Source: Treponema sp. (GTDB lineage: Bacteria; Spirochaetota; Spirochaetia; Treponematales; Treponemataceae). From it: a stretch of 64,000 bases of DNA. Positions 7,304 through 59,141 of the stretch are shown here, piece after piece. A program made the translations under genes and the position numbers. The stretch covers positions 28,019 through 92,018 of the forward strand of contig JAFXSM010000016.1 of the NCBI GenBank assembly GCA_017525605.1, in the 5' to 3' direction. Each line of letters starts with the position of its first letter. Position 1 is the stretch's first letter. A model generated the notes under the pieces. It did not search any database, was not told the DNA's origin, and worked only from the letters and a program-made list of their open reading frames with translations.

Positions 7304-7323
7304 ATTTTAATTCTGCTCGAAGA

Positions 7324-7382: not shown

Positions 7383-7402
7383 GCAGAAATATTGGAGTTT
7401 TC

Positions 7403-8632: not shown

Positions 8633-8633
8633 T

Positions 8634-8794: not shown

Positions 8795-8804
8795 CATTGA
8801 GATA

Positions 8805-8864: not shown

Positions 8865-8880
8865 GTGTCGAATGTTTATG

Positions 8881-9348: not shown

Positions 9349-9363
9349 GGAAAAGACCTCCTG

Positions 9364-9433
9364 AAAAATAAAATCTTGTGTTCCGTACGGAACAAATTAC
9401 TATACAAAAAAAAACTTGTATAACAAGATTTTA
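9364..9433 (-). terminator. Stem-loop with internal 14-bp palindrome after asnB
   Basis: On the - strand AAAATCTTGT (9431-9422) pairs perfectly with ACAAGATTTT (9375-9366) and is followed by ATTTTT, a plausible asnB terminator. The loop contains a smaller CTTGT-TAT-ACAAG hairpin with nine Ts and a perfect 14-bp palindrome, GTTCCGTACGGAAC (9380-9393). The palindrome sits 31 bases before the lipoprotein start codon and could alternatively be an operator. Confidence 0.55.
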
Positions 9434-9458
9434 TCTTCAATTTTTCTCACAGCTCTGT

Positions 9459-11300
9459 TTAGAGGTGGATTCCTTCGAGTATGCCGCTCGGCTCGTCATG
9501 TTCGGTTGTTTCAGAAGCTGGGGCAAATTCTCGATCCCTTAGCTCCTTTGCTTTTTTCCAATCTTTTACCCATTTACTTGCGGTTTCTGTCGAACAGGCA
9601 ATGCTCGCTTCATGCGGAACGACTTTTGCGGCACTGTCGGATGGGAAAAGCTCGCTGTAGATTTCCCTGTAATAGTATTCCTCTTTTGTTTTCGGTGGAT
9701 TTATAGGGAATCGTGTAGCACGACGCTCGAATTCGGCATCTGAGATTTTTTCATCCGTCATTCTCTTAAGTTCGTTAATCCAGCTGTACCCAACGCCGTC
9801 AGAGAACTGCTCCTTCTGTCTCCATGCGATTTCAGGAGGAAGCATGTCCTCGAATGCCTTACGGAGAATCCATTGTTCAATTCGATGTATTTCAGGATGA
9901 TTATCATTTTTATCCCTCCTCATTTTGAAAAGCCAGTTTTTTGATTCAGGATTTCCATCTTCCAGCATTATGCTCATTTTATCGGTCGGATTCAGGCTCA
10001 TCGCAATGTCGATGAAATCCTTGTCTAGGAACGGAACTCTTCCCTCAACACCCCATGCCATGAGCGATTTGTTCGCGCGAAGGCAGTCATAAAGATGAAG
10101 CTTCGACATTTTTCTGACAAGCTCCTCGTGGAATTCTTTTGCGTTAGGCGCACAGTGAAAATAAAGATAGCCGCCGAAAAGCTCGTCGCTGCCCTCGCCG
10201 GAGAGAACCATCTTTATTCCCATCGACTTTATGACGCGCGCAAGAAGATACATCGGAGTTGACGCGCGCACTGTGGTGATGTCGTATGTCTCGATGTGGT
10301 AGATGACATCGCGGAGCGCGTCCTTTGCTTCCTGAATCGTAAAATGAACTTCGTGGTGAATCGTTCCGATGTATTCGGCAGCCTTTCTTGCGGCAACCAA
10401 ATCAGGCGAATCTTCAAGACCGATTGCGAACGAGTGGAGCTGTGGCCACCACGCGCCCTGCTTTCCGTCCGACTCTACCCTCTTCTTTGAAAATTTCTGC
10501 GTGATTGCGGCGATTATCGAAGAATCAAGTCCTCCAGAAAGGAGAACGCCATACGGAACGTCCGACATGAGCTGCTGCTTCACAGCCTGTTCAAGTCCGT
10601 TCTTCACTTTCTCGATTACGCTCGGATTGATGATTTCGCCCTTGTCGTCCGTCGCTTTCGGGTTGTCCTTCACGTTCTCGAAAGACTCCCAATCCCGTTT
10701 GTACCAGCGGACAGGCTTTCCGTCCTTCGAGTACAAGTAGTGTCCGTTCGGGAATTCCTCAATTGAAGTGCAGTATCCTTCCAACGCCTTGAGCTCCGAC
10801 GCGACATAATACCGACCAAGCTTGTCCCAGCCCTGATAGAGCGGGATTACACCGATTTCATCGCGGCCAATCAGGTACGCGTCCTTTTCGGAATCGTAGA
10901 GGGCGAACGCAAAAATGCCGGAAAGTTTCTCAAGGAATTCCGTTCCGTAAGTTTTGTAAAGCGGAATGATTACCTCGCAGTCGCTCTGAGTTTTGAAGTT
11001 GTATTTTCCTTCGAATTCCGCCCTGATTTCCTTGTGATTGTAGATTTCGCCGTTCACCGCAAGAATGATTTTTCCATCGTCTGAAACAAGCGGCTGCTTT
11101 CCAGAAAGCGGGTCAACGATTGCAAGCCTCTCGTGGCTCAGAATCGCGTTGTCGCCCGCATAAACGCCGGACCAGTCCGGTCCCCTATGCCTTATCGTCT
11201 TAGACTGCTCCAGAATCTGCTTCCTAAGCTCCGCTTTCAGAGCATCGTCTATAGGCTGCCCTCCCGCACTCAAATCAAAAGCTCCGACAAATCCGCACAT
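9459..11300 (-). CDS. asnB: Asparagine synthetase, glutamine-hydrolysing (class B)
   Basis: This converts aspartate to asparagine using glutamine and ATP. Cys2 follows the initiator Met (MCGFVGAF), as required for the class II glutaminase nucleophile, with RHRGPDWSG, LAIVDPLSGKQPL and VNGEIYNH glutaminase motifs next. The synthetase half has the pyrophosphatase loop LSGGLDSS (near residue 250), and SGEGSDELFGGY and EGRVPFLD further on. At 613 residues it is longer than E. coli AsnB (554), mainly through insertions and a longer C-terminus. The start is fixed by Cys2 and a GGGGG ribosome-binding site. A promoter and strong terminator hairpin precede it, so the gene is probably controlled by attenuation. 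Confidence 0.95.
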   Translation of the reverse strand: MCGFVGAFDLSAGGQPIDDALKAELRKQILEQSKTIRHRGPDWSGVYAGDNAILSHERLAIVDPLSGKQPLVSDDGKIILAVNGEIYNHKEIRAEFEGKYNFKTQSDCEVIIPLYKTYGTEFLEKLSGIFAFALYDSEKDAYLIGRDEIGVIPLYQGWDKLGRYYVASELKALEGYCTSIEEFPNGHYLYSKDGKPVRWYKRDWESFENVKDNPKATDDKGEIINPSVIEKVKNGLEQAVKQQLMSDVPYGVLLSGGLDSSIIAAITQKFSKKRVESDGKQGAWWPQLHSFAIGLEDSPDLVAARKAAEYIGTIHHEVHFTIQEAKDALRDVIYHIETYDITTVRASTPMYLLARVIKSMGIKMVLSGEGSDELFGGYLYFHCAPNAKEFHEELVRKMSKLHLYDCLRANKSLMAWGVEGRVPFLDKDFIDIAMSLNPTDKMSIMLEDGNPESKNWLFKMRRDKNDNHPEIHRIEQWILRKAFEDMLPPEIAWRQKEQFSDGVGYSWINELKRMTDEKISDAEFERRATRFPINPPKTKEEYYYREIYSELFPSDSAAKVVPHEASIACSTETASKWVKDWKKAKELRDREFAPASETTEHDEPSGILEGIHL

Positions 11301-11333
11301 AAAAATAACCCCCGAATGAAAATCAATTTAAAA

Positions 11334-11425
11334 TAAAAAAAGACGCTCATTCAGGCACAATCGTAGTGCTGAATGAACGTCTTCGTTCGAAAAAGAATAC
11401 TACATCAAACGATTTTTTTGTTCAA
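11334..11425 (-). promoter_or_regulatory. asnB promoter and attenuator leader
   Basis: On the - strand there is TTGAAC (11425-11420), a 17-base spacer and TAGTAT (11402-11397). Next comes a hairpin GAAC-GAAGAC-GUUC (11388-11375). Its 3' half is part of the left arm of a strong terminator (11381-11342, stem GACGTTCATTCAG, one wobble and one bulge) followed by seven Ts. The asnB ribosome-binding site and ATG follow after 34 bases. The same sequence pattern GAACGANGRCGTTC overlaps the terminator before the glutamate synthase genes. The structure could also act as the thioredoxin terminator, but the promoter upstream of it argues for an attenuator. Confidence 0.6.
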
Positions 11426-11466
11426 TAAACCCGTTCGCAAACCGAACCGATGCAGGCTGATTTTCG

Positions 11467-11778
11467 TTACAGGGTCTCGCTGATCCACTTTGAGAGGACT
11501 TCTTTCGGCTGGAATCCAGATGCCGTCGATTTCTGCTCGCCGTCCTTGAAGATGAAGAGCGACGGGACAGCCATTATTCCAAGCTCGCGGCTCAAATCTG
11601 GAGCGGAATCGACATCGACCGAGAAGAATTTCACCTTTCCCTCGAAATCAGAAGAAACTTCCTGGAAAACAGGCTTGAGCATCTGGCAAGGGCCGCACCA
11701 TGTAGCCGAAAAATCCACGACAGAAACGCCTTCTTTTACTGCATCTTTGAATTCAGATTCTGAAATTTCCTTTACCAT
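11467..11778 (-). CDS. trxA: Thioredoxin
   Basis: This 103-residue protein has the classic active site WCGPCQ near residue 30 (VVDFSATWCGPCQMLKP), the cis-Pro motif IMAVPSLFIF and the terminal helix that completes the thioredoxin fold. The length is typical of the family. It serves as a cytoplasmic disulfide reductase. It lies between the interrupted OhrR-like gene and asnB on the same strand. The link with a peroxide-type regulator upstream is suggestive of a redox pair, but the 47-base gap from the end of the regulator frame gives no proof of cotranscription. Confidence 0.95.
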   Translation of the reverse strand: MVKEISESEFKDAVKEGVSVVDFSATWCGPCQMLKPVFQEVSSDFEGKVKFFSVDVDSAPDLSRELGIMAVPSLFIFKDGEQKSTASGFQPKEVLSKWISETL

Positions 11779-11825
11779 CTTTTACTCCTAAATAAAAATT
11801 TTGATTTTGTTCCAAATTGCCACAT

Positions 11826-12269
11826 TCATTCATTGCAGATATGCGACAAAAACCTATCCAATATCGACTTCAGGCTTTTTATCTCGTCTTCCGTCAATTT
11901 CATGCAACACGACATCCTATAAGGAATCTAGGCGCACTTGTCGCGGAGGGCAGTCCCCTGCTCGGTGACGCGGACAATCAAGTTTCTCTCGTCCGCCTTC
12001 GACCTTTCGCGCGTGAGCACGCCTTTCGACTCAAGCGTCTTGAGAACCGGAGTGAGCGTCCCGGAATCGAGGAAAAGTTTTTTTCCCAAATCCTTCACGT
12101 TCATCTCGTTCTTTTCCCAAAGTGCCATCATCGTTATGTACTGCGTATAAGTCAAATCGACTTCGTCAAGAAAGGGCTTGTAGCGTTTGACAATCTCTTT
12201 CGAGCAAACGTAGAGCGGAAAGCAAAGCTGATTCGAAAGCAGCAGCTGGTTGTAATTCTGATTTTCCAA
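11826..12269 (-). pseudogene. OhrR-like MarR regulator with an in-frame TAG stop
   Basis: A TTG start at 12269 has GGAGG eight bases upstream, and the protein begins MENQNYNQLLLSNQLCFPLY, close to OhrR including the reactive Cys in NQLCF. The winged helix (LTYTQYITMMAL ... VKDLGKKLFLDSGTLTPVLK) is intact. At codon 114 (11930-11928) the frame hits TAG, yet it stays open in the same frame for 33 more residues (starting IPYRMSCCMKLTEDE) to TGA at 11828-11826. These residues match the expected OhrR C-terminal dimerisation helix, and the total of 147 codons is the usual OhrR length. Either the gene is a recent pseudogene, the stop is read through, or the base is a sequence error. A truncated 113-residue product lacks the last dimer helix. 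Confidence 0.75.
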
Positions 12270-12322
12270 TTTCACGACCTCCCAGTCTCCCGATTTAATT
12301 GAACACAACTGATTACGATTAG

Positions 12323-12351
12323 AATATACACCGCAAATTTAAAATAGTCAA
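12323..12351 (-). promoter_or_regulatory. Promoter of the OhrR-like gene
   Basis: On the - strand TTGACT (12351-12346) and TATATT (12328-12323) are separated by 17 bases. This is the closest match to a sigma-70 promoter I saw in the window, and it lies 54 bases before the proposed TTG start. AT-rich direct repeats with ATYGAACACAA at about 12298 and 12372 flank it and may bind the regulator. Confidence 0.6.
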
Positions 12352-12402
12352 TAAGTTTTTACAAAATTAAATCGAACACAATTATATTTTATTCAAATTC
12401 CA

Positions 12403-12972
12403 CTAACGTTCATAAGTCCGAAGAACCTGCTCGGCAACAGCAATCCTTGTGAGCCGCAAATCCATGCTCTGCTTCTCGATGTATCGGTGTGCCTGAGGCT
12501 CGGTCATCTTGAGGGTCTGAATCAAGACGCACTTCGCCCTATCGACCATGCGAAGCTCCTCGATTTTGCTCTGAAGCTTAAAATTCTCCGCCTCAAGTTT
12601 CTGCACCTGGCGGCGGCTTGCAACGAGAAGCTTGACCGCCTGGTTGAAAAATTCGGGAGAAACAGGCTTCGGCACGGCAAATATTCCCGAATCCTCAAGA
12701 ATCGAGCCGAAATCTTCAATCTTAGTGCCGTCCACAAGGATGATTATTCCGCTGTTCGAGCACTCGGAAGCATGAAGCGCAAGGTCGTCGCCGAATTCGT
12801 CAGGAAGCGGCGTGTCGATTATTATCAAATCGAATTCGGATTCCAGAAGATTGCGCCGCGCCTCGGCACAACTTTGCGCGGTGACAATCCGAGAAATCGG
12901 ATGCGAAATGAAGAGACCCGATATTATCTGCATCGTCGAACTCGTGTTCGAAACTATGAAAACACTGTCCAT
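12403..12972 (-). CDS. ANTAR-domain antiterminator with pseudo-receiver
   Basis: Residues 1-115 form a receiver-like domain: DLIIIDTPLPDEF supplies the phospho-acceptor position (Asp53) and VPKPVSPE the conserved Lys102. The N-terminal acidic pair is replaced by Ser-Asn, so phosphorylation may be lost, as in AmiR-type regulators. A helical linker (~115-135) leads into an ANTAR RNA-binding domain (about 130-185) with the family pattern ending in RLTRIAVAEQVL. ANTAR proteins prevent termination by stabilising hairpins in leader RNAs. The gene starts 31 bases after glnA ends. A glnA-antiterminator order is known in some clostridia (nitR), so a role in nitrogen regulation is inferred. Confidence 0.85.
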   Translation of the reverse strand: MDSVFIVSNTSSTMQIISGLFISHPISRIVTAQSCAEARRNLLESEFDLIIIDTPLPDEFGDDLALHASECSNSGIIILVDGTKIEDFGSILEDSGIFAVPKPVSPEFFNQAVKLLVASRRQVQKLEAENFKLQSKIEELRMVDRAKCVLIQTLKMTEPQAHRYIEKQSMDLRLTRIAVAEQVLRTYER

Positions 12973-13003
12973 AAAGCAAGCTCCAAGTTCTACCAGCGAA
13001 AAA

Positions 13004-14287
13004 TCAAATCACGCCGAATTCCGGGTCAACGATTGTGTTTTCAGAGCTGTTGAAGAAATCGAGGAGAACTTTCGGGAATATTTTTTCCGCAAAGTCACCG
13101 TTCTTTGCGACAGTCCAAGCGTCATCAAGATTTGCCGGAAGTTTTTTGATTCCGCCAAGCTCGCCTTCTTTCGCGCTGAACAAATCGATGTCAACGGAAT
13201 CCTGAAGGACGCGTTTGTTTTCGATTCCCTCAATGCCGGCAGAAAGCAATGCGTAAATCGCAAGGTACGGATTGCAGACAGGGTCGGAAGCCCTGTATTC
13301 GATTCGAGCCTCGTCATCGCTACGGGCAGCAGGAAGACGGATAAGCTGGCTTCTGTTCTGGCGGCTCCAGCTGACATACTTCGGTGCCTCGAATTCGCCA
13401 AGACGACAGTAAGAATTCGGAATCGTGTTCATGTACGCAGTGATTTCGCACGCGCGGAAGAGAATGCCCGCAAGGAACGACTTTGCCTCGTCCGAAAGTT
13501 TGTCGCCCGCAAAAAGGTTCGCTCCGTTTTTCATGAGAGAGATGTTGAGATGAAGGCCGTTCCCCGACTCGCCGTCAATCGGCTTCGGAAGGAAACAAGC
13601 GAACAGACCGTTCCTTGCTGCAATCGTCTTGACGACTGTCTTGAACGTCTGGAGATTGTCGGCCGCATTCAGAACGTCCGAATATCTGAAATCGACCTCG
13701 TTCTGTCCAGGTCCAGTCTCGTGGTGCGAAGTCTCAGGATGAACGCCCATCTGCTCAAGCGTCAGGCAGATTTCGCGACGCACGTTCTCGCCCTTGTCGC
13801 GCGGAGCAAGGTCGCAGTAGCTGGCTTTGTCGAAAGGCTCTTTCGTAGGCTCGCCCTTGTCGTCGCACTTGAAAAGGTAGAATTCGCATTCCGTGCCGAT
13901 GTTGAACGAAAGACCTTTCTCACGAGACTTCTCCACAAAATCCGAAAGAATCTTCCGCGCATCGCCCTCGAACGGTTTTCCGTCTGCATAGCGGATGTTG
14001 CAGAAGAAACGGACGACGCGACCGACCTGAGGTCTCCACGGAAGGACGCACAGAGTCGAAGCGTCAGGAACGATGAACAAATCAGACTTTGCGACGCTCA
14101 GAAATCCCTTGACTGCGCTTGCGTCAAAAGAAATTCCGCGGCTGAATGCCATCTCAAGCTCGCTCGGCTGAATCGAAATCGACTTCACGCTTCCGTAAAC
14201 GTCCGTAAAAAAAAGTTTGATGAAGCGGACATCATTTTCGCGTATGTACTGAATCGCTTCCTGCTCTGTGTATGTACCTCTTTCCAT
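13004..14287 (-). CDS. glnA: Glutamine synthetase, type I
   Basis: This catalyses ATP-dependent amidation of glutamate. At 427 residues it is the short GSI-alpha form. Visible are the beta-grasp N-terminus (RFIKLFFTDVYGSVKS), the metal and glutamate site HHETGPGQNEVDFRY, NGLHLNISL, and the long conserved block from NSYCRLGEFEAPKYVSWS to RIEYRASDP. The Tyr adenylylation loop of GSI-beta enzymes is not evident. The ATG at 14287 has a GGAG ribosome-binding site seven bases away; an upstream in-frame start would run into the esterase gene. It lies 43 bases after the SGNH esterase gene and just before the ANTAR regulator. Confidence 0.95.
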   Translation of the reverse strand: MERGTYTEQEAIQYIRENDVRFIKLFFTDVYGSVKSISIQPSELEMAFSRGISFDASAVKGFLSVAKSDLFIVPDASTLCVLPWRPQVGRVVRFFCNIRYADGKPFEGDARKILSDFVEKSREKGLSFNIGTECEFYLFKCDDKGEPTKEPFDKASYCDLAPRDKGENVRREICLTLEQMGVHPETSHHETGPGQNEVDFRYSDVLNAADNLQTFKTVVKTIAARNGLFACFLPKPIDGESGNGLHLNISLMKNGANLFAGDKLSDEAKSFLAGILFRACEITAYMNTIPNSYCRLGEFEAPKYVSWSRQNRSQLIRLPAARSDDEARIEYRASDPVCNPYLAIYALLSAGIEGIENKRVLQDSVDIDLFSAKEGELGGIKKLPANLDDAWTVAKNGDFAEKIFPKVLLDFFNSSENTIVDPEFGVI

Positions 14288-14330
14288 TTTCTTCTCCAAA
14301 AATCCGAAATCCAAAATGCTTAAAAAAATT

Positions 14331-15104
14331 TTATTTTTTGAAAATGAGGAATTCGTCATCGATTTCCTCACCGTCGGATTCGTCAATCTTTTTTCCGATG
14401 ACAGAATCCGAAAGATCCTTGTAATCCGCCCAAGTCTCCCCGAGTTTTGCAATTTCCATCGCAGTGATTCTAGAAACCTCGAAAGCACCGTCCGGGCGCA
14501 AATGGCTGTTGTCGCTTTTTCCGTCAGGATAATTCGAGTAGAGACCGGCTTCGAAATTCATGAAAAAACGCCTTGAATTCTCTTCCCCGATATCCTCAAG
14601 AAATTCCATCGTGAGCCGCGTCACGTCGATGCACGGAACGCCGAGCGCACCGGCAGTTTCGATTATCGCATTCGGATATTCGCCGTGGGTGTTCTCGACT
14701 TTCTGAATTCCGTCCGAATCGGCTTCAAGGAATTTTCTTCTTGAGACAGGTGTCAGCAGAATCGGCTTGCATTTTTTCGCCCAAAGATTCATCACGAAGA
14801 ATTCGAGATTCCTTCTGAATTCGCCGTTTTCGTCAGGGCTTGTGTACCTGCTTGCATCGGCGATTTTCTCGTCGTTGTGCGCGAACTGAATCAGGACGTA
14901 ATCGCCCTCTTCCGCCACCTCAAGAACTTTTTCGAAACGACCTTCCGCAATGAATGATTTTGTGCTTCTTCCGTTCCGAGCGAAATTCAAAAATTCCGTG
15001 TTTCTCGGAAAAAATCTTGCAAGTTCCTGAACCCAGCCTGTTTGCGGATAAGTCAGGCAGTCGTTGTATTGCATGATGCTGTCGCCAAGACAAAGAATTC
15101 GCAT
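14331..15104 (-). CDS. SGNH/GDSL esterase, rhamnogalacturonan acetylesterase-like (CE12)
   Basis: All four SGNH blocks can be seen: LGDSIMQ (catalytic Ser), FARNGRSTKSF (Gly block), QFAHNDEK (Asn block) and SDNSHLRPDGA (catalytic Asp and His). The order and the HLRPDGA ending resemble rhamnogalacturonan acetylesterases of family CE12. No signal peptide is present, so it would act on imported, partly degraded pectin fragments in the cytoplasm. The C-terminal 40 residues are acidic and unique. It lies between glmS (27 bases) and glnA. The window also codes for a secreted pectate lyase at 48.9 kb, consistent with pectin use. Confidence 0.82.
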   Translation of the reverse strand: MRILCLGDSIMQYNDCLTYPQTGWVQELARFFPRNTEFLNFARNGRSTKSFIAEGRFEKVLEVAEEGDYVLIQFAHNDEKIADASRYTSPDENGEFRRNLEFFVMNLWAKKCKPILLTPVSRRKFLEADSDGIQKVENTHGEYPNAIIETAGALGVPCIDVTRLTMEFLEDIGEENSRRFFMNFEAGLYSNYPDGKSDNSHLRPDGAFEVSRITAMEIAKLGETWADYKDLSDSVIGKKIDESDGEEIDDEFLIFKK

Positions 15105-15131
15105 TTTCTACCCCCGATTTCTATTCGATTT

Positions 15132-17087
15132 TTACTCGACCGTAACTGATTTCGCGAGATTTCTCGGCTTGTCAGGGTCGTTTCCGCGGAGAATCGAACA
15201 ATAGTATGCAAAAAGCTGAGCCGGAATTATCGAAATGATGCTTTCGAGCGAAGATTCGGTTTCAGGAATCTGCACAACCTCGTCGCAGCTTGCGTTGAAA
15301 ATTCCTGTTGATTCCTGCGTGATGCACATCGTGACGGCACCGCGTGTCTTGACCTCGACGATGTTTGAGATGAGCTTTTCGTAAAGCTCAGGCGAAGTCG
15401 CAATCGCAATGACGAGAGTGTCCTTGTCAACGAGCGCAATCGGGCCGTGCTTGAGCTCGCCGGCAGCGAATGCCTCGCAGTGCATATAGCTGACTTCTTT
15501 AAGTTTGAGCGCGCTTTCGAGGGAGCTTGCAGAATCGAACTGGCGGCCGATGTAGAAAATCTTCGACTTGTTGAACTGTTTTGAAGCGAATTTCTGAATG
15601 ACAGCCTGATTGTCGAGAATCTTCTGCGCCTTTGAAGGAATTGCGACAAGTTCGGAAAGGAGCTTTTCGTACTCGCATTTTTCGATTTTTGCCTTTCCAA
15701 AGCCGAATTTGAGCGCGAGCATGTAGAGGCAGGCAAGCTGTGTCGTGTACGCTTTTGTCGATGCGACCGCAATTTCAGGGCCCGCAAGAGTGTAGATGAC
15801 GAAATCGGCTTCGCGGCTTACGGTTGAGCCGACGCAGTTCGTTATCGCAATGACTTTCGCGCCTTTTGACGAAGCAAGACGCATTGCCGCAAGAGTGTCG
15901 GCAGTTTCGCCTGACTGAGACACGACTATGAAAACATCATCCTCGTTAAGAATCGGATTCCTGTAGCGGAATTCGGACGCGACATCAACGACAGTCGGGA
16001 TTCGCGCGAATTTTTCGAACGCGTATTTTCCGACAACGCCAGCGTGATATGCAGTTCCGCAAGCCGTGATGACGATTCTGGAAGCATTTTTTATCATGCT
16101 GTCGAATTTCTCGGAATTGATTTCGTTGTCGAAAGTCAAATCGACCGCTTTTTTCTCGGAAGAACTTTCATCAAAAACGAGATGTGCCTTAATAGTGTCC
16201 TCGATTGCTTTCGGCTGCTCGTAGATTTCTTTGAGCATGAAATGCGCATATCCGCCCTTCTCGGCAGAACTCAAATCCCAGTCAACATGAGTCGGCTGCC
16301 TTACAATCTGCTGACCTTCCGCATTGAACAAATCAACATGGTCGCTGTACAAAACGGCAAGCTCGTTCTGTTCGAGGAAATAAACTTCGCGCGTGTATTC
16401 AAGAACGGCAGGAACGTCCGACGCGATGAAATTCTCGTTGTTTCCGACACCGACGATGAGCGGGCTTTCTTTTCGTGCCGCAATCACCCTGTCAGGGAAA
16501 TCCTTGCAGACCACGCCGAGCGCATAGCTTCCTTCGAGCCTGTGAAGAGTCTCAAGAACTGCATTGAAAATGTTCTTCGTCCTTTCGTAAAAATGATTTA
16601 TGAGATGCGCGATGACCTCAGTGTCAGTCTGGCTTCTGAAAACAACGCCCTGCGACTGGAGCCACACCTTGAGTTTCGCATAGTTTTCGACGATTCCGTT
16701 GTGTACGACGACGATTGAGCCGCTTTCGTTCGTGTGCGGGTGCGAGTTGAGGTCGCTCGGTTCCCCGTGCGTTGCCCAGCGTGTGTGACCGATTCCGATG
16801 TTTCCATAGACAGCCTCGCCGCATTTTTCGATAAGGCGCGAGTCGAATTCGTCATCCTTCTCGCCTTCTTTTTTTTCCAAGAACGCCTCGTCAACGATTG
16901 CGGATGCGATTCTCTTTTCAAGGAAACGGAGCGCACCTTTTGATTTTTTTACAATGATTTCTTCGTTTGATTTTGAAAGAACAGCAATTCCGGCAGAGTC
17001 ATATCCTCTGTATTCAAGTTTTTTCAGTCCGTTGATAAGAATCGGCGTAGCGTTTTTGCAGCCAACATATCCAACAATTCCACACAT
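15132..17087 (-). CDS. glmS: Glutamine--fructose-6-phosphate aminotransferase
   Basis: This makes glucosamine-6-phosphate, the entry point to cell-wall amino sugars. Cys2 (MCGIVGYVG) is the glutaminase nucleophile and GHTRWATHGEPSD and HNGIVENY motifs follow. Two SIS sugar-isomerase domains form the rest, with VSQSGETADTL and GPEIAVASTKAYT in the first and the family-typical tail DKPRNLAKSVTVE at the end. At 651 residues it is about 40 longer than E. coli GlmS, mainly from an insertion near residues 75-100. No glmS-type ribozyme or riboswitch was noticed in the short 63-base region before the ATG. It neighbours glnA and asnB, all glutamine-linked enzymes. Confidence 0.95.
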   Translation of the reverse strand: MCGIVGYVGCKNATPILINGLKKLEYRGYDSAGIAVLSKSNEEIIVKKSKGALRFLEKRIASAIVDEAFLEKKEGEKDDEFDSRLIEKCGEAVYGNIGIGHTRWATHGEPSDLNSHPHTNESGSIVVVHNGIVENYAKLKVWLQSQGVVFRSQTDTEVIAHLINHFYERTKNIFNAVLETLHRLEGSYALGVVCKDFPDRVIAARKESPLIVGVGNNENFIASDVPAVLEYTREVYFLEQNELAVLYSDHVDLFNAEGQQIVRQPTHVDWDLSSAEKGGYAHFMLKEIYEQPKAIEDTIKAHLVFDESSSEKKAVDLTFDNEINSEKFDSMIKNASRIVITACGTAYHAGVVGKYAFEKFARIPTVVDVASEFRYRNPILNEDDVFIVVSQSGETADTLAAMRLASSKGAKVIAITNCVGSTVSREADFVIYTLAGPEIAVASTKAYTTQLACLYMLALKFGFGKAKIEKCEYEKLLSELVAIPSKAQKILDNQAVIQKFASKQFNKSKIFYIGRQFDSASSLESALKLKEVSYMHCEAFAAGELKHGPIALVDKDTLVIAIATSPELYEKLISNIVEVKTRGAVTMCITQESTGIFNASCDEVVQIPETESSLESIISIIPAQLFAYYCSILRGNDPDKPRNLAKSVTVE

Positions 17088-17150
17088 AATTACCCTCTTG
17101 TGCTTGAAAAGTCAATTTAATTTTTCCCGGTAATTATGAATGAAATTTCG

Positions 17151-18545
17151 TTATTTACCAACACAGAAGCGGCTGAAAATTGAACCGAGAATATCATCCG
17201 GCGTGACATCTCCGGTGACAATTCCGAGCGCATCGAGCGAATCTTCCAAATCCTGAACGACAGCATCAAGCGCAAAGTCGCTCGAAAGCGCAAGCGCGTG
17301 GCTCACGGATTCGAGAGCGTCCTCTACGGCAACTTTCTGCCGCTCGCTTCCCAATCCAGTCTGTGAACGGTCTGATTCAGACGAAGACGAAAGCAGTTTT
17401 TTCACGAGAGAGCTGAGTTCCGCAATGCCCTCGCCAGTTTTCGACGAGATTGACACGACGGGACAAGAGAAATCAATTTCGATTTTCTTTGATTCAGGCG
17501 AATCTGCCTTTGTTGAAACAAGAATCAAAGGGACATTTGATTTCTCAGAATCATGTTTTTCAAGGAATTCAGAATCTTCTTTTGAAAGCGGAAATCTTGA
17601 GTCGGCAAGGTACAAAATCAAATCCGCCTCGTCGGAAAGGTCTTTCGTTATCTCGACCCCCTTTGCCTCGATTAAATCGTCAGTCTCGCGGAGTCCCGCA
17701 GTGTCAAAAAGCCTTGCCGGGATTCCGTCAAAGTCAATCCACGACTCGATGAAGTCGCGCGTTGTTCCCTCGATGTCGCTGACGATTGCACGGTCTTCTT
17801 TCAAAAGCGCGTTGAAAAGCGACGATTTTCCAGCATTTGTTTTTCCGCAAAGAACGACCCTCGCTCCGTCCTGATAAATCTTCTCAGACTTCCATGACGA
17901 AGCCAGATTCGTAAGCGCATCTTTCGCACGCCTTAATTTCGTGTCGTCGAACGAATCAGCAATGTTCTCTTCGTCTTCCGGGTATTCGATTTCAACTTCG
18001 ATGTCCGCGATTGTCTCCACAATGAGTTTTTTCACCGAATCAATCGTTTCGTAGAGATTTCCTGCAAGACGACCAGCGGCACGGGAACGCGACTCGTCTG
18101 TCTTTGAGTCGATGATTTCGCGGACTGCCTCCGCCTTCGTCAAATCGGTCTTTCCGTTGATGTATGCCCTGAAAGTGAACTCGCCCCTCTCCGCCTGCCT
18201 GAAACCCGATTTCAGAAGCAAGTTGTAGACCGCCATGACGACCGAAACACCGCCGTGACAGCTGATTTCAACCATGTCCTCGCCCGTGAAGCTTTTCGGG
18301 GAGCGGAAAACGGAGACGAGAACCTCGTCCACTTTTTTTTCGCCGTCAATAATCCAGCCGTAAAGAATCGTGTTTCCGCCGGCGTTCAAAAGCGCGGACG
18401 GGCGCGAAAATATTTTTGAAAGAAGCTCAATGCTGTTTTTCCCGGAAGCCCTGACGATTCCAAGCGCACTCGGAGAAAGCGCAGTCGCAATCGCCGCAAT
18501 CGGTTCTTCCGGCGTATATCCTGTGTTGTCCATTTTTTTTCTCAC
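17151..18545 (-). CDS. mnmE: tRNA modification GTPase MnmE
   Basis: With MnmG this installs the cmnm5U34 modification in tRNA wobble positions. The N-terminal folate-binding domain precedes a helical domain that carries an inserted GTPase module: GKTNAGKSSLF (G1), DIEGTTRD (G2), DTAGLRE (G3), STKAD (G4). The protein ends FCVGK, matching the family FC(I/V)GK tail whose Cys is needed for catalysis. The GTG at 18545 overlaps the stop of the upstream gene; an ATG at 18533 is the alternative start. The overlap points to translational coupling with the DUF4015 lipoprotein gene. Confidence 0.95.
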   Translation of the reverse strand: MRKKMDNTGYTPEEPIAAIATALSPSALGIVRASGKNSIELLSKIFSRPSALLNAGGNTILYGWIIDGEKKVDEVLVSVFRSPKSFTGEDMVEISCHGGVSVVMAVYNLLLKSGFRQAERGEFTFRAYINGKTDLTKAEAVREIIDSKTDESRSRAAGRLAGNLYETIDSVKKLIVETIADIEVEIEYPEDEENIADSFDDTKLRRAKDALTNLASSWKSEKIYQDGARVVLCGKTNAGKSSLFNALLKEDRAIVSDIEGTTRDFIESWIDFDGIPARLFDTAGLRETDDLIEAKGVEITKDLSDEADLILYLADSRFPLSKEDSEFLEKHDSEKSNVPLILVSTKADSPESKKIEIDFSCPVVSISSKTGEGIAELSSLVKKLLSSSSESDRSQTGLGSERQKVAVEDALESVSHALALSSDFALDAVVQDLEDSLDALGIVTGDVTPDDILGSIFSRFCVGK

Positions 18546-54350: not shown

Positions 54351-54593
54351 ATGAACAAAGACGAAGTTAAGGCAAAGCTCAAGGGTTTCTTCGAATCAAA
54401 TCTCGGAGTTGATGGTTCAATTCTCAATGACGACACACCTCTTTTCGGTGATGAAATTGGCTTGGATTCAGTTGATTCATTGGAAATCATCTCTTTCGTT
54501 GACGATGAATTCGGAGTTTCTATGACAGGCGTTGCAAAAGAGAACTTCCTGAGCATCGAATCAATTTCTTCTTTCATCGTTGCAAACGCATAA
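54351..54593 (+). CDS. Acyl carrier protein
   Basis: The 80-residue acidic helical protein carries the phosphopantetheine site LDSVDSLEII (Ser41) preceded by a GDEIGLDS loop and followed by helix 3 and a short helix 4. The length and the pattern are those of ACPs of fatty-acid or polyketide systems. A GAGG site lies nine bases before the ATG. It lies 36 bases before the KS-CLF gene, so it is likely to be dedicated to that cluster rather than the housekeeping AcpP. Confidence 0.93.
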   Translation: MNKDEVKAKLKGFFESNLGVDGSILNDDTPLFGDEIGLDSVDSLEIISFVDDEFGVSMTGVAKENFLSIESISSFIVANA

Positions 54594-54629
54594 CTAAAAA
54601 AACAAATTTTAATTGAGACGGAAATATTT

Positions 54630-57029
54630 ATGACATCTGAAAACAAACGCTGCGTAGTAACCGGACTCGGAGTTATATGCGCAATCGGTAATAATGTTGA
54701 AGAAACATGGAAGAACGCTTTGAATTCAGTTTCAGGAATCCAAAAGACAACTTCCGTTGATACGACCAACTGTTATGCCAATCTCGCTGCTGAAGTAAAA
54801 TGCGACACACTGGACAGTGAAGTTGAGAATCCAGAGGAAAAGGACAGGGCTTCAAAGCTCTGCATCAAAGCCACGAAAGAAGCATTGGCAGATGCTGGTC
54901 TCAAGGATTTTGCGGACGATCCACGTGTGAGCGTAATCATCGGAAGCTGTGTCGGAGGTGCTATCAGCGTCGGAAACTATCCGATTGACGGACGAAAGGC
55001 TGACGACATTCTCAAAATGCCAATCGCAGCGATTGCTTCTCAGGTTGCAGAGACTTGCCATGCAGGCGGAATCGTCACGAACGTGGCGAATGCTTGTGCG
55101 GCAGGCACGATTTCCGTTGCATACGCTTGCGACTTGATTCGCGCCGGAAAAGCGGACATCGTAATCGCAGGCGGTGCGGACTCATTCGCATCGATTCCAT
55201 ACGCCGGATTCCTTTCGCTCCACGCGCTCGACGAGAACGGATGCTCTCCGTTCAACCACTGCAAGGGAATCACGCTCGGAGAAGGCGCAGGAATCGTAAT
55301 CGTAGAGTCTTACGAGCACGCAAAGAAACGCAATGCAAAACAGTATTGCGAGATTTTGGGTGCAAGCGTCACAAGCGACGCACACCACATCACAGCTCCT
55401 AGAGAGGACGGACTTTGCCAGATTGAGGCAATCAACCGCGCCCTCAACAATTCGGGACTCAAAAAATCCGACATCGGCTATGTGAACGGACACGGAACAG
55501 GAACTGCAAAGAACGACAACGCAGAAATCCTTTCGCTCCACACTGTTTTCGACGAGGAGAACCCGGAAATCAGCGCAAGCTCCACAAAAGTAATGACAGG
55601 CCACTGTCTCGGAGCGGCAGGTGCAATCGAGGCTGTATTCAGCATCAAGGCACTCACCACAAACACAGTCCTTCCAACTCTCAACTACACGGAAGAGGAT
55701 TCTGAGAAACTGAGGGAGAAAGCCGGAAAGCTCGATTTCGTGCAGAACAAACCGAAGTCAAAAGAGCTCAACAGCGTGATGAGCAACAATTTCGCATTCG
55801 GCGGAACAAACGCAAGCATCATCTTCTCAAAGCAGATCGGCGACGTGAAGAGTCAGGAAGCAAAAGACAAGAAAATCGCACTTACTGGAATCGGAATCGT
55901 AAGCATTCTCGGAAACAGCAAGGAAAAATATATCGAATCCGTGAAGAATTCATTCAAACCTGAAAGCACTTCGGTTCATTCGACAGTGTCTGACGCGGAT
56001 TACAACGAGCTTGGAATCAAGATGGCATTCTACAGGAAGCTCGACAATCTCGGTCAGTTGCAGACTGTATCTGGAATGCGCGCGCTCAAGGACGGAAACT
56101 TCACCGTAACGGACGAGAACGCAAAGGAAATCGGAATCATCGTCGGAACTAGCGAGGGCGGACTCGGCTCAAGCTGCGATTTCGGCGAGTTGATTGCAAA
56201 ACAGGGAAATTCAAAGGGAAGCGCGTTCAAATTCCCGCACACAGTTTACAATGCGGCAGGCGGATACCTTTCAATCTGCTCTGGAATCAAGGGCTACGGC
56301 GTGACAATCACGAGCGGCCCGCAGTCGGGACTCGGAAGCATCGGATATGCGATGAACGTAATCCACGACAACCAGGAAAAAGCGATGCTCGCAACTGGAA
56401 GCGACGAGAATATCCCGATTCTTTCTGAATTCTACGAGAAACTGAATTTCACGGCGGACAAAGTTGTCACTCCGTATTCATCTTCAAGCGGATTCGTTCT
56501 CGGCGACGGAAGCGTCTCGCTTCTCCTTGAGGCAGAGGATTACGCAAAGAGCCGCGGCTCAAAAATCTACGGCTACGTTCTCGGATACGGAACCGGAAGA
56601 AAGAACGTCAAATTCGGAACGCTTTCAGGCTCGGGCGAGGCATTGGACATCGCAATCAACGAGGCACTGAAAAACGCTGGCATTTCCGCTTCTGAAATCG
56701 ACGCGGTGTTCGGATTCGCGAACGGAATGGAAAAAATCGACAACCTTGAGAAAGAGTCATACATCAGGGTTTTCGGCGACAAAATCGGCTCTCTCCCTGT
56801 CGTTCAGGTAAAGGAAAGGACGGGCGAAGGCCGTGCGGGAACTGCAACACTCGCAGTCGCACACGCGGCACTGATGCTTGACGGCGAAATCGAAAGCGAC
56901 GGCGCATACTTCATCGCAAAAGACGGCAAAGTCGAGAAGAAGAGCGTCGAAGCAAAGAATCTGAAGAAGATTCTCGTCACGTCGTTCGCAACAGGCGGTT
57001 CTTACTCAGCCGTAGTAATCGGAAAATAA
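54630..57029 (+). CDS. Fused ketosynthase and chain-length-factor-like protein
   Basis: Two KAS-type domains lie in tandem. The N-terminal half (1-405) has the full triad: Cys156 in NVANACAAGT, His288 in VNGHGTGT and His325 in VMTGHCLGAAG, plus NNFAFGGTNAS. It should perform decarboxylative condensation. The second half (412-799) keeps the fold (VYNAAGG, SIGYAMNVI, LGDGSVSLLLE) but has TSGPQSGLGS in place of the Cys motif (Pro564, Gln565) and no equivalent of either His (GFANGMEK, VKERTGEGRAG). Chain-length factors of type II polyketide synthases carry a similar G-x-Q-A-G. Normally the two are separate proteins that dimerise, so a fusion of 799 residues is unusual. It follows the ACP gene and precedes KR and DH genes. 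Confidence 0.9.
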   Translation: MTSENKRCVVTGLGVICAIGNNVEETWKNALNSVSGIQKTTSVDTTNCYANLAAEVKCDTLDSEVENPEEKDRASKLCIKATKEALADAGLKDFADDPRVSVIIGSCVGGAISVGNYPIDGRKADDILKMPIAAIASQVAETCHAGGIVTNVANACAAGTISVAYACDLIRAGKADIVIAGGADSFASIPYAGFLSLHALDENGCSPFNHCKGITLGEGAGIVIVESYEHAKKRNAKQYCEILGASVTSDAHHITAPREDGLCQIEAINRALNNSGLKKSDIGYVNGHGTGTAKNDNAEILSLHTVFDEENPEISASSTKVMTGHCLGAAGAIEAVFSIKALTTNTVLPTLNYTEEDSEKLREKAGKLDFVQNKPKSKELNSVMSNNFAFGGTNASIIFSKQIGDVKSQEAKDKKIALTGIGIVSILGNSKEKYIESVKNSFKPESTSVHSTVSDADYNELGIKMAFYRKLDNLGQLQTVSGMRALKDGNFTVTDENAKEIGIIVGTSEGGLGSSCDFGELIAKQGNSKGSAFKFPHTVYNAAGGYLSICSGIKGYGVTITSGPQSGLGSIGYAMNVIHDNQEKAMLATGSDENIPILSEFYEKLNFTADKVVTPYSSSSGFVLGDGSVSLLLEAEDYAKSRGSKIYGYVLGYGTGRKNVKFGTLSGSGEALDIAINEALKNAGISASEIDAVFGFANGMEKIDNLEKESYIRVFGDKIGSLPVVQVKERTGEGRAGTATLAVAHAALMLDGEIESDGAYFIAKDGKVEKKSVEAKNLKKILVTSFATGGSYSAVVIGK

Positions 57030-57031
57030 AC

Positions 57032-57157
57032 AGTTCTGTTCGGAAACTGAAGTTTGATTCATCAAAACACAGAAATCCGAACAGTTTTAATGACAAACCG
57101 GAATGCGCAAGTTTTCCGGTTTTTTTTCAGACCGCCCGAAGAAAATAATTTCTCGGG
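57032..57157 (+). terminator. Three successive hairpins between the KS-CLF and ketoreductase genes
   Basis: H1 CTGTTCGGA/TCCGAACAG (57035-57083) is followed by TTTT. H2 AAACCGG/CCGGTTT (57094-57121) is followed by a T tract to 57126. H3 GCCCGAAGAAA/TTTCTCGGGC (57133-57157) has one bulge. H2 has the strongest terminator look. The KR-DH-flavoprotein genes start 22 bases after H3 without an obvious new promoter, so partial termination may set subunit levels. Confidence 0.6.
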
Positions 57158-57178
57158 CTTTCAAAGGAAATCAACAGG

Positions 57179-57910
57179 ATGAAAGTTGCAATTGTAACAG
57201 GTTCTTCAAAAGGAATCGGAAAGGCATGCGCTGTAAGGCTTGCAAAAGACGGATACACAGTCGTCGTGAACTATTCAAGTTCGGACGAAGCTGCGCAGAA
57301 AACATTGGACGAAATCAAATCAGCAGGCGGCGACGGAATGCTCTACAAAGCTGACGTTTCCGACCTCGCGCAAGTGAAAGCAATGGTTCGCGAAGTCTAC
57401 AAGGCTTACGGCAGAATCGATGTTTTGGTGAACAACGCAGGAATCGTCCGCGACGAATTCCTCCTCATGCTCCAGAAAGACACTCTCGACAAGTGCTTCG
57501 ACCTGAACGTGAAAGGATATTTCTACTGCGCACAGGCTGTCGCTCTCAAGATGTTCAAGCAGAAATCGGGCGTAATCATCAATATGTCTTCTGTAAGCTC
57601 AAAATTCGCGCTTCCGGGACAGAGCGTCTACTCGGCGACGAAGGGCGCGGTCAACTCGATGACGCAGACTCTCGCAAAGGAACTCGGCGGACAGGGAATC
57701 AGAGTCAACGCAGTTTGCCCGGGATTCATCGCCACGGAGATGATTGACGCAATTCCGCAGGAAAAGAAGGACGAGTACGTCAAGGCGATTCCGGCAGGAA
57801 GATTCGGCACGGCTGAGGAAGTCGCGAACGTCGTCTCGGCACTCGCTTCTGACGCATTCGCATACGTCACAGGTCAGACAATCGTACTCGACGGAGGACT
57901 TTCACTATGA
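57179..57910 (+). CDS. fabG: 3-oxoacyl-ACP reductase (short-chain dehydrogenase)
   Basis: This NADPH-dependent ketoreductase has the SDR nucleotide motif TGSSKGIGKACAV, NNAG at residues ~81-84, the catalytic Ser/Tyr/Lys region (SVSSKF ... YSATKGA) and a C-terminal TGQTIVLDGGLSL typical of FabG. Its length of 243 aa is normal. An AGG-type site lies before the ATG. Its stop overlaps the dehydratase start by ATGA. In the cluster it would reduce the beta-keto products of the KS. Confidence 0.93.
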   Translation: MKVAIVTGSSKGIGKACAVRLAKDGYTVVVNYSSSDEAAQKTLDEIKSAGGDGMLYKADVSDLAQVKAMVREVYKAYGRIDVLVNNAGIVRDEFLLMLQKDTLDKCFDLNVKGYFYCAQAVALKMFKQKSGVIINMSSVSSKFALPGQSVYSATKGAVNSMTQTLAKELGGQGIRVNAVCPGFIATEMIDAIPQEKKDEYVKAIPAGRFGTAEEVANVVSALASDAFAYVTGQTIVLDGGLSL

Positions 57911-58398
57911 GCGACGCAGTAGAGAATACAACCGAAACAGCAGAAAAGAAGACAATGAACATTTTCGAAATCAGCGAGAAAATCGCGCAGAGACCTCCGT
58001 TCCAGATGATTGAGAAAGTCACCGAGCTTATCCCGAACGTGAGCGCGACCGGAATCAAAAATGTTTCCGTGAACGAGCCATATTTCATGGGTCATTTTCC
58101 GGGAACACCAATTATGCCGGGCGTTCTTGTCGTTGAAAGCTGCGCACAGCTCTGCTCGCTCGTCATCGAAAAATCCGCAGAAGATTTGGACGACAAGCTC
58201 TATGTCCTCCTCAAAATCGACGGATTCAAATTCGTGAAGCCTGCGATTCCTGGCGACAGGCTCGAAATCACGGTCACAAAAACAAAGGGCGGCGGCGTTC
58301 TTGTGGGATTCGACTGCGTTGTGAAAATCGACGGAAAAGTCACTGCAAAAGGCGCGCTGACATTCACGACGATTCCGAAAGATTCGCTTGGCAAATGA
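57907..58398 (+). CDS. fabZ: FabZ-like 3-hydroxyacyl-ACP dehydratase
   Basis: The hotdog-fold dehydratase shows PPFQMIEKVTEL, catalytic His in GHFPGTPIMPGVLVVE and the Glu of ESCAQ. It has an extra ~22-residue hydrophilic N-terminal extension (MSDAVENTTETAEKK) compared with usual FabZ (~145 aa). It overlaps the KR stop at its 5' end and the flavoprotein start at its 3' end (ATGA at both junctions). It forms enoyl products in the cluster. Confidence 0.9.
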   Translation: MSDAVENTTETAEKKTMNIFEISEKIAQRPPFQMIEKVTELIPNVSATGIKNVSVNEPYFMGHFPGTPIMPGVLVVESCAQLCSLVIEKSAEDLDDKLYVLLKIDGFKFVKPAIPGDRLEITVTKTKGGGVLVGFDCVVKIDGKVTAKGALTFTTIPKDSLGK

Positions 58399-59141
58399 AA
58401 AAGGTATTAGTTTTAAACGGAAGTCCGAAGAAAGAAAACAGCACGACAATGCTCGTCACGAACAACTTTCTGAAAGGACTTGAAAGCACAGGCGAATACA
58501 AAAGCGAAATCATCAACGTCTCAAGTTTGAACGTGAAGCCGTGCAAAGGGTGTTTGAGCTGCTGGGGAAGGACGAACGGAAACTGCGTCATAAAAGGCGA
58601 CGATGTTCAGATGGTGAAGGACAAATTCCTTGAAGCCGACATCGTGATTTTCAGCTTTCCGATTTTCATTTTCGGTCTGCCGGGAGAATTCAAAGTCCTG
58701 CTCGACAGGCTGCTCAGCCTGCTCCACCGCTACGAAGGTCTTCCTGTTCCAGAAAAAGGACCTTTCCACGGGTTCAGCTTCGACCAGAGCAAGAAGAAGT
58801 TCATCGTGATTCCGGGTTGCGCTTGGAGCGACTGGCGTGTTTTCGAGCCGATTGAGATGCAGATGAACTGCATTTTCGGCAAGGGCGAATACACAACGAT
58901 TTTCGCGCCGCAGATAAGGACGGCAATCGCAATGAAAATCCGGCCGCGCTTTGTGAAATTCCTCACGAAATACGAGGCTGCCGGAAAAGAATTTGCGGAA
59001 AACGGCTTCCTTTCCGACGAGACAAAAGCAAACGTCATAAAGCCTTATTATTCCGAAGCAGTCTACAAACAGCTCGTTGACAGCTTCTGGGAAATCGAGG
59101 ACGCGGCGTACAAAGCAAGCCTTGAAAAAAAACAGGGTTAA
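58395..59141 (+). CDS. NADPH-dependent FMN reductase / iron-sulfur flavoprotein family
   Basis: A flavodoxin-like fold is indicated by VLVLNGSPKKENSTTMLV (FMN phosphate loop) and VIFSFPIFIFGLPGEFKVLLDRL. A Cys cluster, PCKGCLSCWGRTNGNC, is like the 4Fe-4S ligands of Isf-type flavoproteins. The C-terminal ~90 residues form an unusual extension. It is translationally coupled to the dehydratase (ATGA). No classical enoyl-ACP reductase occurs in the window, so this protein may supply reduction or another tailoring step, which is inference. Confidence 0.82.
   Translation: MKKVLVLNGSPKKENSTTMLVTNNFLKGLESTGEYKSEIINVSSLNVKPCKGCLSCWGRTNGNCVIKGDDVQMVKDKFLEADIVIFSFPIFIFGLPGEFKVLLDRLLSLLHRYEGLPVPEKGPFHGFSFDQSKKKFIVIPGCAWSDWRVFEPIEMQMNCIFGKGEYTTIFAPQIRTAIAMKIRPRFVKFLTKYEAAGKEFAENGFLSDETKANVIKPYYSEAVYKQLVDSFWEIEDAAYKASLEKKQG

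What the first reader, a model, noticed from the sequence alone, without database searches (positions are those of the whole stretch)
54351..59141. Compact ACP / fused KS-CLF / KR / DH / flavoprotein cluster, possibly a new type II polyketide or lipid system
The synthase halves are fused in one 799-residue chain. The first has Cys156/His288/His325; the second lacks all three and has GPQSG where chain-length factors have G-x-Q-A-G. Ketoreductase, dehydratase and flavoprotein follow, each overlapping its predecessor by ATGA. Known minimal KS-CLF systems use two polypeptides, so a fused form with a dedicated ACP and reductive enzymes in a bacterium of this type would be a distinct architecture.
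Basis: partly seen in the sequence, partly recalled or inferred. Interest (0 to 1): 0.82.

Follow-up and report, generated by a model that had tools for sequence, protein, structure and literature searches.

The report
Fused ketosynthase lipid cassette in Treponema
Gut and rumen Treponema, Fibrobacter and some Clostridia share a gene set in which a ketosynthase is fused to a twin that lacks the catalytic residues, next to its own carrier-protein, ketoreductase-family and dehydratase-family genes, and this set is predicted to build a special fatty chain that would be attached to membrane lipids.

Summary
The genes are real. One 799-residue chain holds an intact ketosynthase (Cys156, His288, Lys320, His325) and a second ketosynthase domain with Pro, Phe and Glu at the catalytic places; ACP, ketoreductase, FabZ and flavoprotein genes flank it. 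ATGA overlaps exist only at the last two junctions; the 'GxQAG' match is off by one residue and lost in most Treponema and Fibrobacter relatives. Fused KS-CLF is already known from PfaC, the one close whole-chain structural match; what looks new is a discrete one. It is no Treponema oddity: relatives occur in Fibrobacter, Clostridia MAGs and the Lachnospira eligens megaplasmid. In 48 loci counted, ACP is present in 48, ketoreductase and FabZ in 46, PlsC-type acyltransferase in 37, patatin in 35. In 101 genomes of Fibrobacter's family the flavoprotein is in 54 of 54 with the synthase (within 12 kb in 9) and 1 of 47 without, uncorrected for kinship. The genome has separate FAS-II genes. Best reading: a dedicated acyl assembly line for membrane lipids, working like a dissected PUFA synthase; product unknown. 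New variant of a known kind.

The parts
54351..54593 (+). Discrete acyl carrier protein, 80 aa, phosphopantetheine Ser40 in DSVDSLE
   Evidence: (PF00550, 32.7 bits); ACP next to the synthase in 48 of 48 counted loci
54630..55844 (+). KS1 half of the fused synthase (residues 1-405): intact C156/H288/K320/H325
55845..57029 (+). KS2 half (residues 406-799): degenerate, chain-length-factor-like; Cys to Pro, His to Phe, His to Glu, Lys kept
   Evidence: whole chain matched by PfaC KS-CLF 6riw, TMq 0.77
57095..57127 (+). Terminator-like hairpin followed by a run of T between synthase and ketoreductase
   Evidence: seen in the sequence, function untested; not listed by the consensus scan
57179..57910 (+). 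FabG-type ketoreductase (SDR), 243 aa, Ser137/Tyr151/Lys155
   Evidence: (TIGR01830 268.6 bits, below its cut-off of 297.75)
57907..58398 (+). FabZ-type dehydratase, 163 aa, His63/Glu77
   Evidence: (NF000582 128.9 bits, above its cut-off of 113)
58395..59141 (+). FMN_red/flavodoxin-fold flavoprotein, 248 aa, C50-x2-C53-x2-C56-x7-C64; candidate ene-reductase (inferred)
   Evidence: co-occurs with the synthase in 54 of 54 genomes of the family of F. intestinalis

Best explanation
The window encodes a discrete acyl carrier protein, a ketosynthase fused in one chain to a second ketosynthase domain that lacks the three catalytic residues, a ketoreductase-family protein, a FabZ-family protein and a flavoprotein, which likely form a dedicated type II assembly line that would make a special acyl chain for membrane lipids. 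Shown: the genes, the residues kept and lost, the single-chain fusion, and the recurrence of the ACP-synthase-KR-FabZ block in Spirochaetota, Fibrobacterota and Bacillota. Predicted: KS1 and KS2 pack as one KS-CLF pseudo-dimer. Inferred: KS1 condenses malonyl units (malonyl-ACP made by the housekeeping FabD here, by a FabD in the operon in Clostridia), KS2 shapes the acyl tunnel and limits chain length, and KR and FabZ reduce and dehydrate after each round. With no known enoyl reductase in the cassette, double bonds would stay unless the flavoprotein, the close genomic companion, reduces some of them, which is the logic of a polyunsaturated-fatty-acid synthase split into separate proteins. Inferred: the finished chain goes onto glycerolipid through the PlsC-type acyltransferase, after the neighbouring patatin opens an acyl position, or through PlsX in some Clostridia; in the window's organism these offloading genes are not beside the cassette.
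For: Whole-chain match to the PfaC KS-CLF didomain (TMq 0.77; the FabF rows stop near 0.46, and the one other very long row, 7zsk_B, has TMq 0.42 at rmsd 48.5) with pTM 0.91. Cys, both His and Lys kept in KS1 in 15 of 15, and Cys and both His lost in KS2 in 15 of 15 tandem rows checked. 48 loci counted out of 59 examined: ACP 48, KR 46, FabZ 46, PlsC-type 37, patatin 35, PlsC-type or PlsX 39, flavoprotein 20 (near-copies included). Clostridia operons add FabD, AccD/AccA or a PccB-type carboxylase, PlsX (two loci), and again flavoprotein, PlsC-type and patatin. In subsets the block is flanked by further lipid-type genes: a MlaE-type permease in 5 loci (one member scanned; group) and a BcrA/BadF-plus-DUF2229 protein in 6 loci of two phyla. 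Flavoprotein in 54 of 54 synthase-positive and 1 of 47 negative genomes of the family of F. intestinalis, within 12 kb in 9. Its nearest solved relative by sequence is 7d38, flavone reductase, an ene-reductase (E 1.4e-9, profile 4e-12; PMC7862272 passages). KS1 groups with ApeO and Bacteroidetes KS rather than FabF (99/97). Other FAS-II genes in the genome.
Against: No product, activity or expression data. In the window the PlsC-type and patatin genes are absent from the neighbourhood; 4 patatins lie elsewhere in the genome, the best 33% identical to the cassette type. The flavoprotein is adjacent in only 20 of 48 loci. Two of 48 loci (L043, L052) have only ACP and synthase. The 54-of-54 association is not corrected for kinship and could be a shared trait of one clade; in fragmented assemblies a different contig does not prove distance. 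KS2 scores best against FabF. The flavone-reductase similarity covers about the first 110 residues only, and that enzyme does not use NAD(P)H directly; by structure the best matches are FMN azoreductases. The hairpin suggests KR-FabZ-flavoprotein may be transcribed apart from ACP-synthase.
Confidence: 0.55

Rival explanations
1. Auxiliary FAS-II: the fused protein is a FabF variant whose dead half is only a scaffold, and the cassette makes ordinary saturated or monounsaturated fatty acids under other regulation, or even the bulk fatty acids in some Clostridia.
For: Both halves score best against FabF models, and the whole chain passes the cut-off of the synthase II subfamily model NF005589. 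Clostridia operons carry the FAS supply genes (FabD, AccD, AccA, PlsX). One Clostridiales MAG (G121, completeness not told) has no other PF00109 match, no FabH match and no full-length FabK.
Against: 9 of 10 carrier genomes have other KS genes, and the window genome has FabD-, FabG-, FabF- and FabZ-like genes and FabV. KS1 groups away from FabF (99/97) and KS2+FabF is disfavoured (AU p 0.027). Patchy: 9 of 117 in the own-plus-relatives set.
Confidence: 0.27
2. A type II polyketide/aryl-polyene-like pigment or secreted metabolite, not a membrane lipid chain.
For: KS1 is nearest to ApeO-type KS in the tree; KS, KR, DH and ACP without a known enoyl reductase is the polyene set. In L009/L010 the cassette is followed by a CrtI/amine-oxidase-like gene whose 91% identical counterpart in the window genome lies in an aryl-polyene-like cluster on C4.
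Against: KS2 is full length, unlike the half-size ApeC (PMC8358021 passages); the commonest partners are PlsC-type, patatin and carboxylase genes, that is glycerolipid and malonyl supply genes. Transporters do recur, but the ones identified are a MlaE-type lipid permease (5 loci) and a LysE-type one (5 loci); not all neighbours were annotated.
Confidence: 0.13
3. A relic or neutral duplication without a distinct function.
For: KS2 has lost the catalytic residues.
Against: 73-76% identity over about 800 residues to most listed relatives, including those named Fibrobacter, invariant residues in both halves, and a recurring gene block.
Confidence: 0.03

Closest known systems
PfaC KS-CLF didomain of PUFA synthases (PDB 6riw; also HglC)
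   Same: Active KS followed by catalytically empty KS/CLF in one chain; whole-chain structural match; part of a lipid-making system with KR and DH
   Different: PfaC is part of a multidomain megasynthase with tandem ACPs, its CLF is followed by DH domains and a PfaD enoyl reductase belongs to the system; here all parts are discrete, the ACP is single, identity in the structural alignment is 17%, and the FabK model finds nothing in the window genome
Aryl polyene KS-CLF ApeO-ApeC
   Same: KS1 groups with ApeO; same minimal set ACP, KS-CLF, KR, DH
   Different: ApeC is a separate, half-size protein; here the second KS is full size and fused
Actinobacterial minimal type II PKS (KS-alpha, CLF, ACP)
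   Same: Active plus inactive KS with dedicated ACP
   Different: Two polypeptides and Gln at the Cys place in CLF (auricin CLF); here one chain with Pro/Ala/Ile/Ser/Met at that place
FabF (FAS-II)
   Same: KS1 36-37% identical to the Bacillus and Listeria FabF of the structure list; best NCBIfam hit TIGR03150, below its cut-off
   Different: FabF is a homodimer with two active sites (recalled)
Flavone reductase FLR (7d38), for the flavoprotein
   Same: Flavodoxin-like FMN fold, nearest solved relative by sequence, shared Cys-rich stretch
   Different: FLR is 310 aa with a substrate-binding tail; the window protein is 248 aa and similarity is confined to the N-terminal part

Membership tests
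PUFA (Pfa) synthase | KS and CLF fused in one chain, CLF lacking Cys-His-His | tested here: met
PUFA (Pfa) synthase | Multidomain PfaA with tandem ACPs | tested here: not met
   Single 80-aa ACP and discrete KR/DH proteins
PUFA (Pfa) synthase | PfaD/FabK-type enoyl reductase with the cluster | tested here: not met
   TIGR03151 0 matches in the own genome; none among the window's cassette genes
Type II PKS (KS-alpha/CLF) | Gln in place of the active-site Cys in the CLF | tested here: not met
   Pro in the window, Pro/Ala/Ile/Ser/Met in relatives; a Gln one residue later in 8 of 15 rows
Type II PKS (KS-alpha/CLF) | KS and CLF on two polypeptides | tested here: not met
   One 799-aa ORF, no internal stop
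Chain length factor clade | Common descent of KS2 with known CLFs | tested here: inconclusive
   KS2 plus all 14 CLF rows form one side, 89/46; long branches flagged; KS1+KS2 clade p 0.018, KS2+FabF p 0.027, KS2+auricin CLF p 0.22
Aryl polyene cluster | Half-size ApeC-type CLF | tested here: not met
   KS2 is 394 aa; the E. coli ApeC row is 240 aa
Aryl polyene cluster | Aryl starter supply and exporter genes | tested here: inconclusive
   None among the window's cassette genes; an AMP-binding gene in L117; neighbours not all annotated
FabF (FAS-II) | Active site in every KS domain | tested here: not met
   KS2 lacks Cys/His/His
Flavone-reductase-type ene-reductases | Sequence similarity along the whole protein including the C-terminal tail | tested here: not met
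   Match covers profile positions 26-108 only; 248 vs 310 aa
Flavone-reductase-type ene-reductases | C=C reduction with FMN | not testable with these tools
   Needs an assay
Iron-sulfur flavoprotein (Isf) | Compact Cys motif CX2CX2CX4-7C (recalled) | tested here: met
   CX2CX2CX7C in 13 of 13 aligned members; cluster binding untested

The most novel reading that the evidence does not exclude
A previously undescribed discrete (type II) counterpart of the PUFA synthase, spread across gut and rumen Treponema, Fibrobacter and Clostridia: a free-standing fused KS-CLF with its own ACP, KR and DH, a flavoprotein that is a new type of enoyl-ACP reductase, and a patatin/PlsC exchange step that swaps the unusual chain into existing phospholipids.
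Probability: 0.33. Interest if true: 0.82.

Novelty: new variant of a known kind. Interest (0 to 1): 0.6.

Why it matters
It would be an orphan lipid pathway in fibre-degrading gut bacteria, including the cultured human commensal Lachnospira eligens and Fibrobacter intestinalis, so the product can be sought directly by lipidomics. A one-chain discrete KS-CLF with separate partners would be a convenient model for how a KS-CLF pair sets chain length, and its companion flavoprotein may be an unrecognised enoyl reductase.

Tried and rejected
GxQAG as in-register CLF evidence: rejected (position off by one; Gln lost in 27 of 30 rows of A1, though kept in 6 of 6 Clostridia rows). Treponema-only system: rejected. 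Sole fatty-acid genes: rejected for the window genome. Recent foreign insertion by base composition: no clear signal. Defence-system models: no hits for three proteins. The 50 rows of VIA-align 2 shown cover model residues 1-404 only, so KS2 was not tested there. PfaC itself is missing from the tree because no PfaC sequence was at hand. The direction of transfer between phyla is unsettled: Fibrobacterota nest among Spirochaetota rows under a Clostridia root that I chose (quick tree). Order-wide search: of 23 genomes over the threshold among 392, 3 hold the long high-scoring match, 2 a divergent tandem protein, and the other 18 match little more than KS1, as a single KS would. The flavoprotein co-occurrence count uses handles that I copied from the listings; genome G117 was the centre because it carries the synthase; the taxon is inferred from L030 (F. 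intestinalis), as the tool names no group. That the window's organism is a Treponema is inferred from its nearest named relatives (95% in L057). Papers: ten searches listed no discrete fused KS-CLF of this kind; only listings and the passages were seen, and the library lacks most subscription papers. The Isf motif and the role of BcrA/BadF-DUF2229 proteins in plasmalogen formation are recalled.
Full report
Observation. The window holds an ACP, a 799-aa synthase, a FabG-type ketoreductase, a FabZ and a flavoprotein in one direction. KS1 keeps C156, H288, K320 and H325. Aligned to E. coli FabF, KS2 has Pro at the Cys, Phe and Glu at the two His and keeps the Lys; in a table of 15 tandem proteins KS1 keeps Cys, both His and Lys in 15 of 15, and KS2 lacks Cys and both His in 15 of 15 and keeps the Lys in 14 of 15. 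ATGA overlaps join KR/FabZ and FabZ/flavoprotein only; the synthase is followed by 149 nt with an 11-pair hairpin and T-run. Across 57 loci measured, some near-copies, the median synthase-to-KR distance including the stop is 25 nt, and 10 exceed 60 nt, so the long gap is shared by a minority.

The Gln argument. The Gln one residue on is kept in 3 of 30 rows of alignment A1 and in 8 of the 15 rows: 6 of 6 of Clostridia origin and 2 of 9 from Treponema and Fibrobacter. In auricin CLF the Gln is at the Cys place itself. So the motif is not the CLF one in register, but a Gln nearby may be old in this family.

Fusion. AlphaFold2 on 30 rows gives pLDDT 87.4 and pTM 0.91 for the whole chain. Foldseek's first match is the KS-CLF didomain of PfaC (6riw), aligned over both halves with TM 0.77 normalised to the query and rmsd 7.0; the FabF matches stop near 0.46, as one half would, and the only other very long row (7zsk_B) has TM 0.42 at rmsd 48.5. 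It also shows that the fused form has a precedent, as PfaC is written KS-CLF-DH2 and HglC KS-CLF-AT in PMC3098273 (passages).

Relations of the halves. By profile, KS2 scores 171 bits against FabF, 107 against actinorhodin KS, 81 against actinorhodin CLF and 73 against 6smo chain C. In a 66-row tree KS1 is one group, placed with ApeO and Bacteroidetes KS apart from FabF (99/97); KS2 is one group (99/100) standing next to CLF rows. Holding KS1+KS2 together is disfavoured (AU p 0.018), so a simple duplication within the gene is unlikely; KS2+FabF is also disfavoured (p 0.027); KS2 with all CLFs is already one side of a branch but weakly (89/46); KS2+auricin CLF is not rejected (p 0.22). Long branches are flagged, the groups were tested after seeing the tree, and PfaC is missing. 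KS2 works like a CLF by its architecture; its descent from known CLFs is open. KS1 and KS2 give nearly the same branching order, fitting an old fusion.

Distribution. The protein search scored 2327 relatives among 7996 candidates; all 120 listed are 73% or more identical over 99-100% of the chain. The genome-contig scan gave 71 loci: Fibrobacter (including F. intestinalis ATCC 43854), Treponema, three Clostridia MAGs at 50-61%, a Bacteroidales-labelled short contig and a Roseburia-labelled fragment, then distant relatives mainly in Bacteroidota, where KS and CLF-like genes are separate neighbours. A plasmid search found the Lachnospira eligens ATCC 27750 megaplasmid (KS1 72.9%; whole protein 64%). 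Presence: 9 of 117 genomes of the own-plus-relatives set, the window's included; 54 of 101 in the family of F. intestinalis; in the order of G122, 23 of 392 pass the threshold but only 3 hold a long high-scoring match and 2 a divergent tandem protein, while 18 match little more than KS1.

The cassette. I searched 59 loci (L009-L065, L082, window) with cassette proteins; 2 lack a full synthase and 9 have under 3.5 kb downstream and were dropped. In the remaining 48: ACP 48, KR 46, FabZ 46, PlsC-type acyltransferase 37, patatin 35, PlsC-type or PlsX 39, flavoprotein 20, PccB-type carboxylase 13, FabD 11, LysE-type transporter 5, AccD and AccA 3, PlsX 2 (Pfam of examples). Near-identical loci are among them (for example L009/L010, L023/L053, L057/window). 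In Lachnospira the order is ACP, synthase, KR, FabZ, FabD, AccD, AccA (by tblastn, not annotated), flavoprotein, PlsX. Two more loci from the order of G122 carry flavoprotein, PlsC-type and, in one, patatin upstream of ACP-synthase-KR-FabZ-FabD-carboxylase. Further neighbours recur in subsets: a 4HBT thioesterase (9 loci by tblastn), a MlaE-type permease (5 loci) and a BcrA/BadF-plus-DUF2229 protein (6 loci, in Fibrobacter and Treponema) (one member of each scanned). The last kind is recalled as linked to plasmalogen formation in anaerobes. So malonyl supply, chain building and glycerolipid genes keep company in three phyla; the window itself shows only ACP, synthase, KR, FabZ and flavoprotein.

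Flavoprotein. It is FMN_red/flavodoxin-like with C-x2-C-x2-C-x7-C in 13 of 13 aligned members. Its nearest solved relative by sequence is 7d38, which Foldseek names flavone reductase (rank 49; the best structural matches are FMN azoreductases with TM near 0.55). That enzyme is an FMN ene-reductase that does not use NAD(P)H directly (PMC7862272, passages). In 101 genomes of the family of F. intestinalis the flavoprotein is in 54 of 54 with the synthase and 1 of 47 without, yet within 12 kb in only 9 of 54 (Fisher p 3e-28, not corrected for kinship; in broken assemblies another contig does not prove distance). I take it as a functional partner; that it reduces enoyl-ACP is inference.

Host context. 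The window's genome has FabD-, FabG-, FabF- and FabZ-like genes on C47 (28-38% to the cassette's kinds), another FabF on C25, FabV on C4, a separate KS with thioesterase, glycosyltransferase and AMP-binding genes on C4, and no match to the FabH or FabK models. The cassette is thus accessory. In one Clostridiales MAG (G121) the fused protein is the only KS found, without FabH and without full-length FabK; if that holds in a complete genome, the flavoprotein would be the first candidate for its enoyl reductase.

Verdict. A dedicated acyl assembly line for membrane lipids, PUFA-synthase-like in logic and built from discrete parts, is the best-supported reading (0.55); an auxiliary FAS is the main rival (0.27). 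It is a new variant of a known kind.

Noticed in passing
L118 (G233:C66:17000-34500) 6835-9273 and L119 (G321:C40:1-16000) 6316-8727: A divergent tandem-KS protein (812 and 803 aa, 30-34% to the window KS) with ABC transporter, FabD, KR, ACP and FabZ-like genes and, in L118, a GcvT-type aminomethyltransferase: apparently a different fused-KS system in Clostridia.
   Followed up: partly
L006 (G000:C4:196000-215000), 7282-17799: Aryl-polyene or resorcinol-like cluster in the window's genome: ApeO-like KS, KR, thioesterase, GT2, AMP-binding protein and a CrtI/amine-oxidase-like gene 91% identical to one beside the fused-KS cassette in L010.
   Followed up: partly
L033:2597-7060, L065:2653-7086 and L045:12647-13384: A BcrA/BadF plus DUF2229 protein (kind recalled as linked to plasmalogen formation in anaerobes) lies near the cassette in six loci of Fibrobacter and Treponema.
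   Followed up: partly
L033:14961-16022: A MlaE-type permease gene follows the flavoprotein in five Fibrobacter loci, hinting at lipid transport beside the cassette.
   Followed up: partly
L010:14100-15131: PlsC-type acyltransferase fused to an LRAT-like domain downstream of the fused-KS cassette.
   Followed up: no
own genome G000 and Fibrobacter genomes G117-G120: No match to the FabH (PF08545) model in the window's genome or in four Fibrobacter genomes, so chain initiation probably uses another enzyme.
   Followed up: partly
L054 genome (G121): Fused KS is the only ketosynthase found in this 1.9 Mb Clostridiales MAG; no FabH match and no full-length FabK.
   Followed up: partly
L042:5827-6483 and L044, L045, L046, L048: A LysE-type transporter follows the patatin in five of the Treponema cassettes.
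   Followed up: no
window 57095-57127: Terminator-like hairpin inside the cassette, between synthase and ketoreductase.
   Followed up: partly
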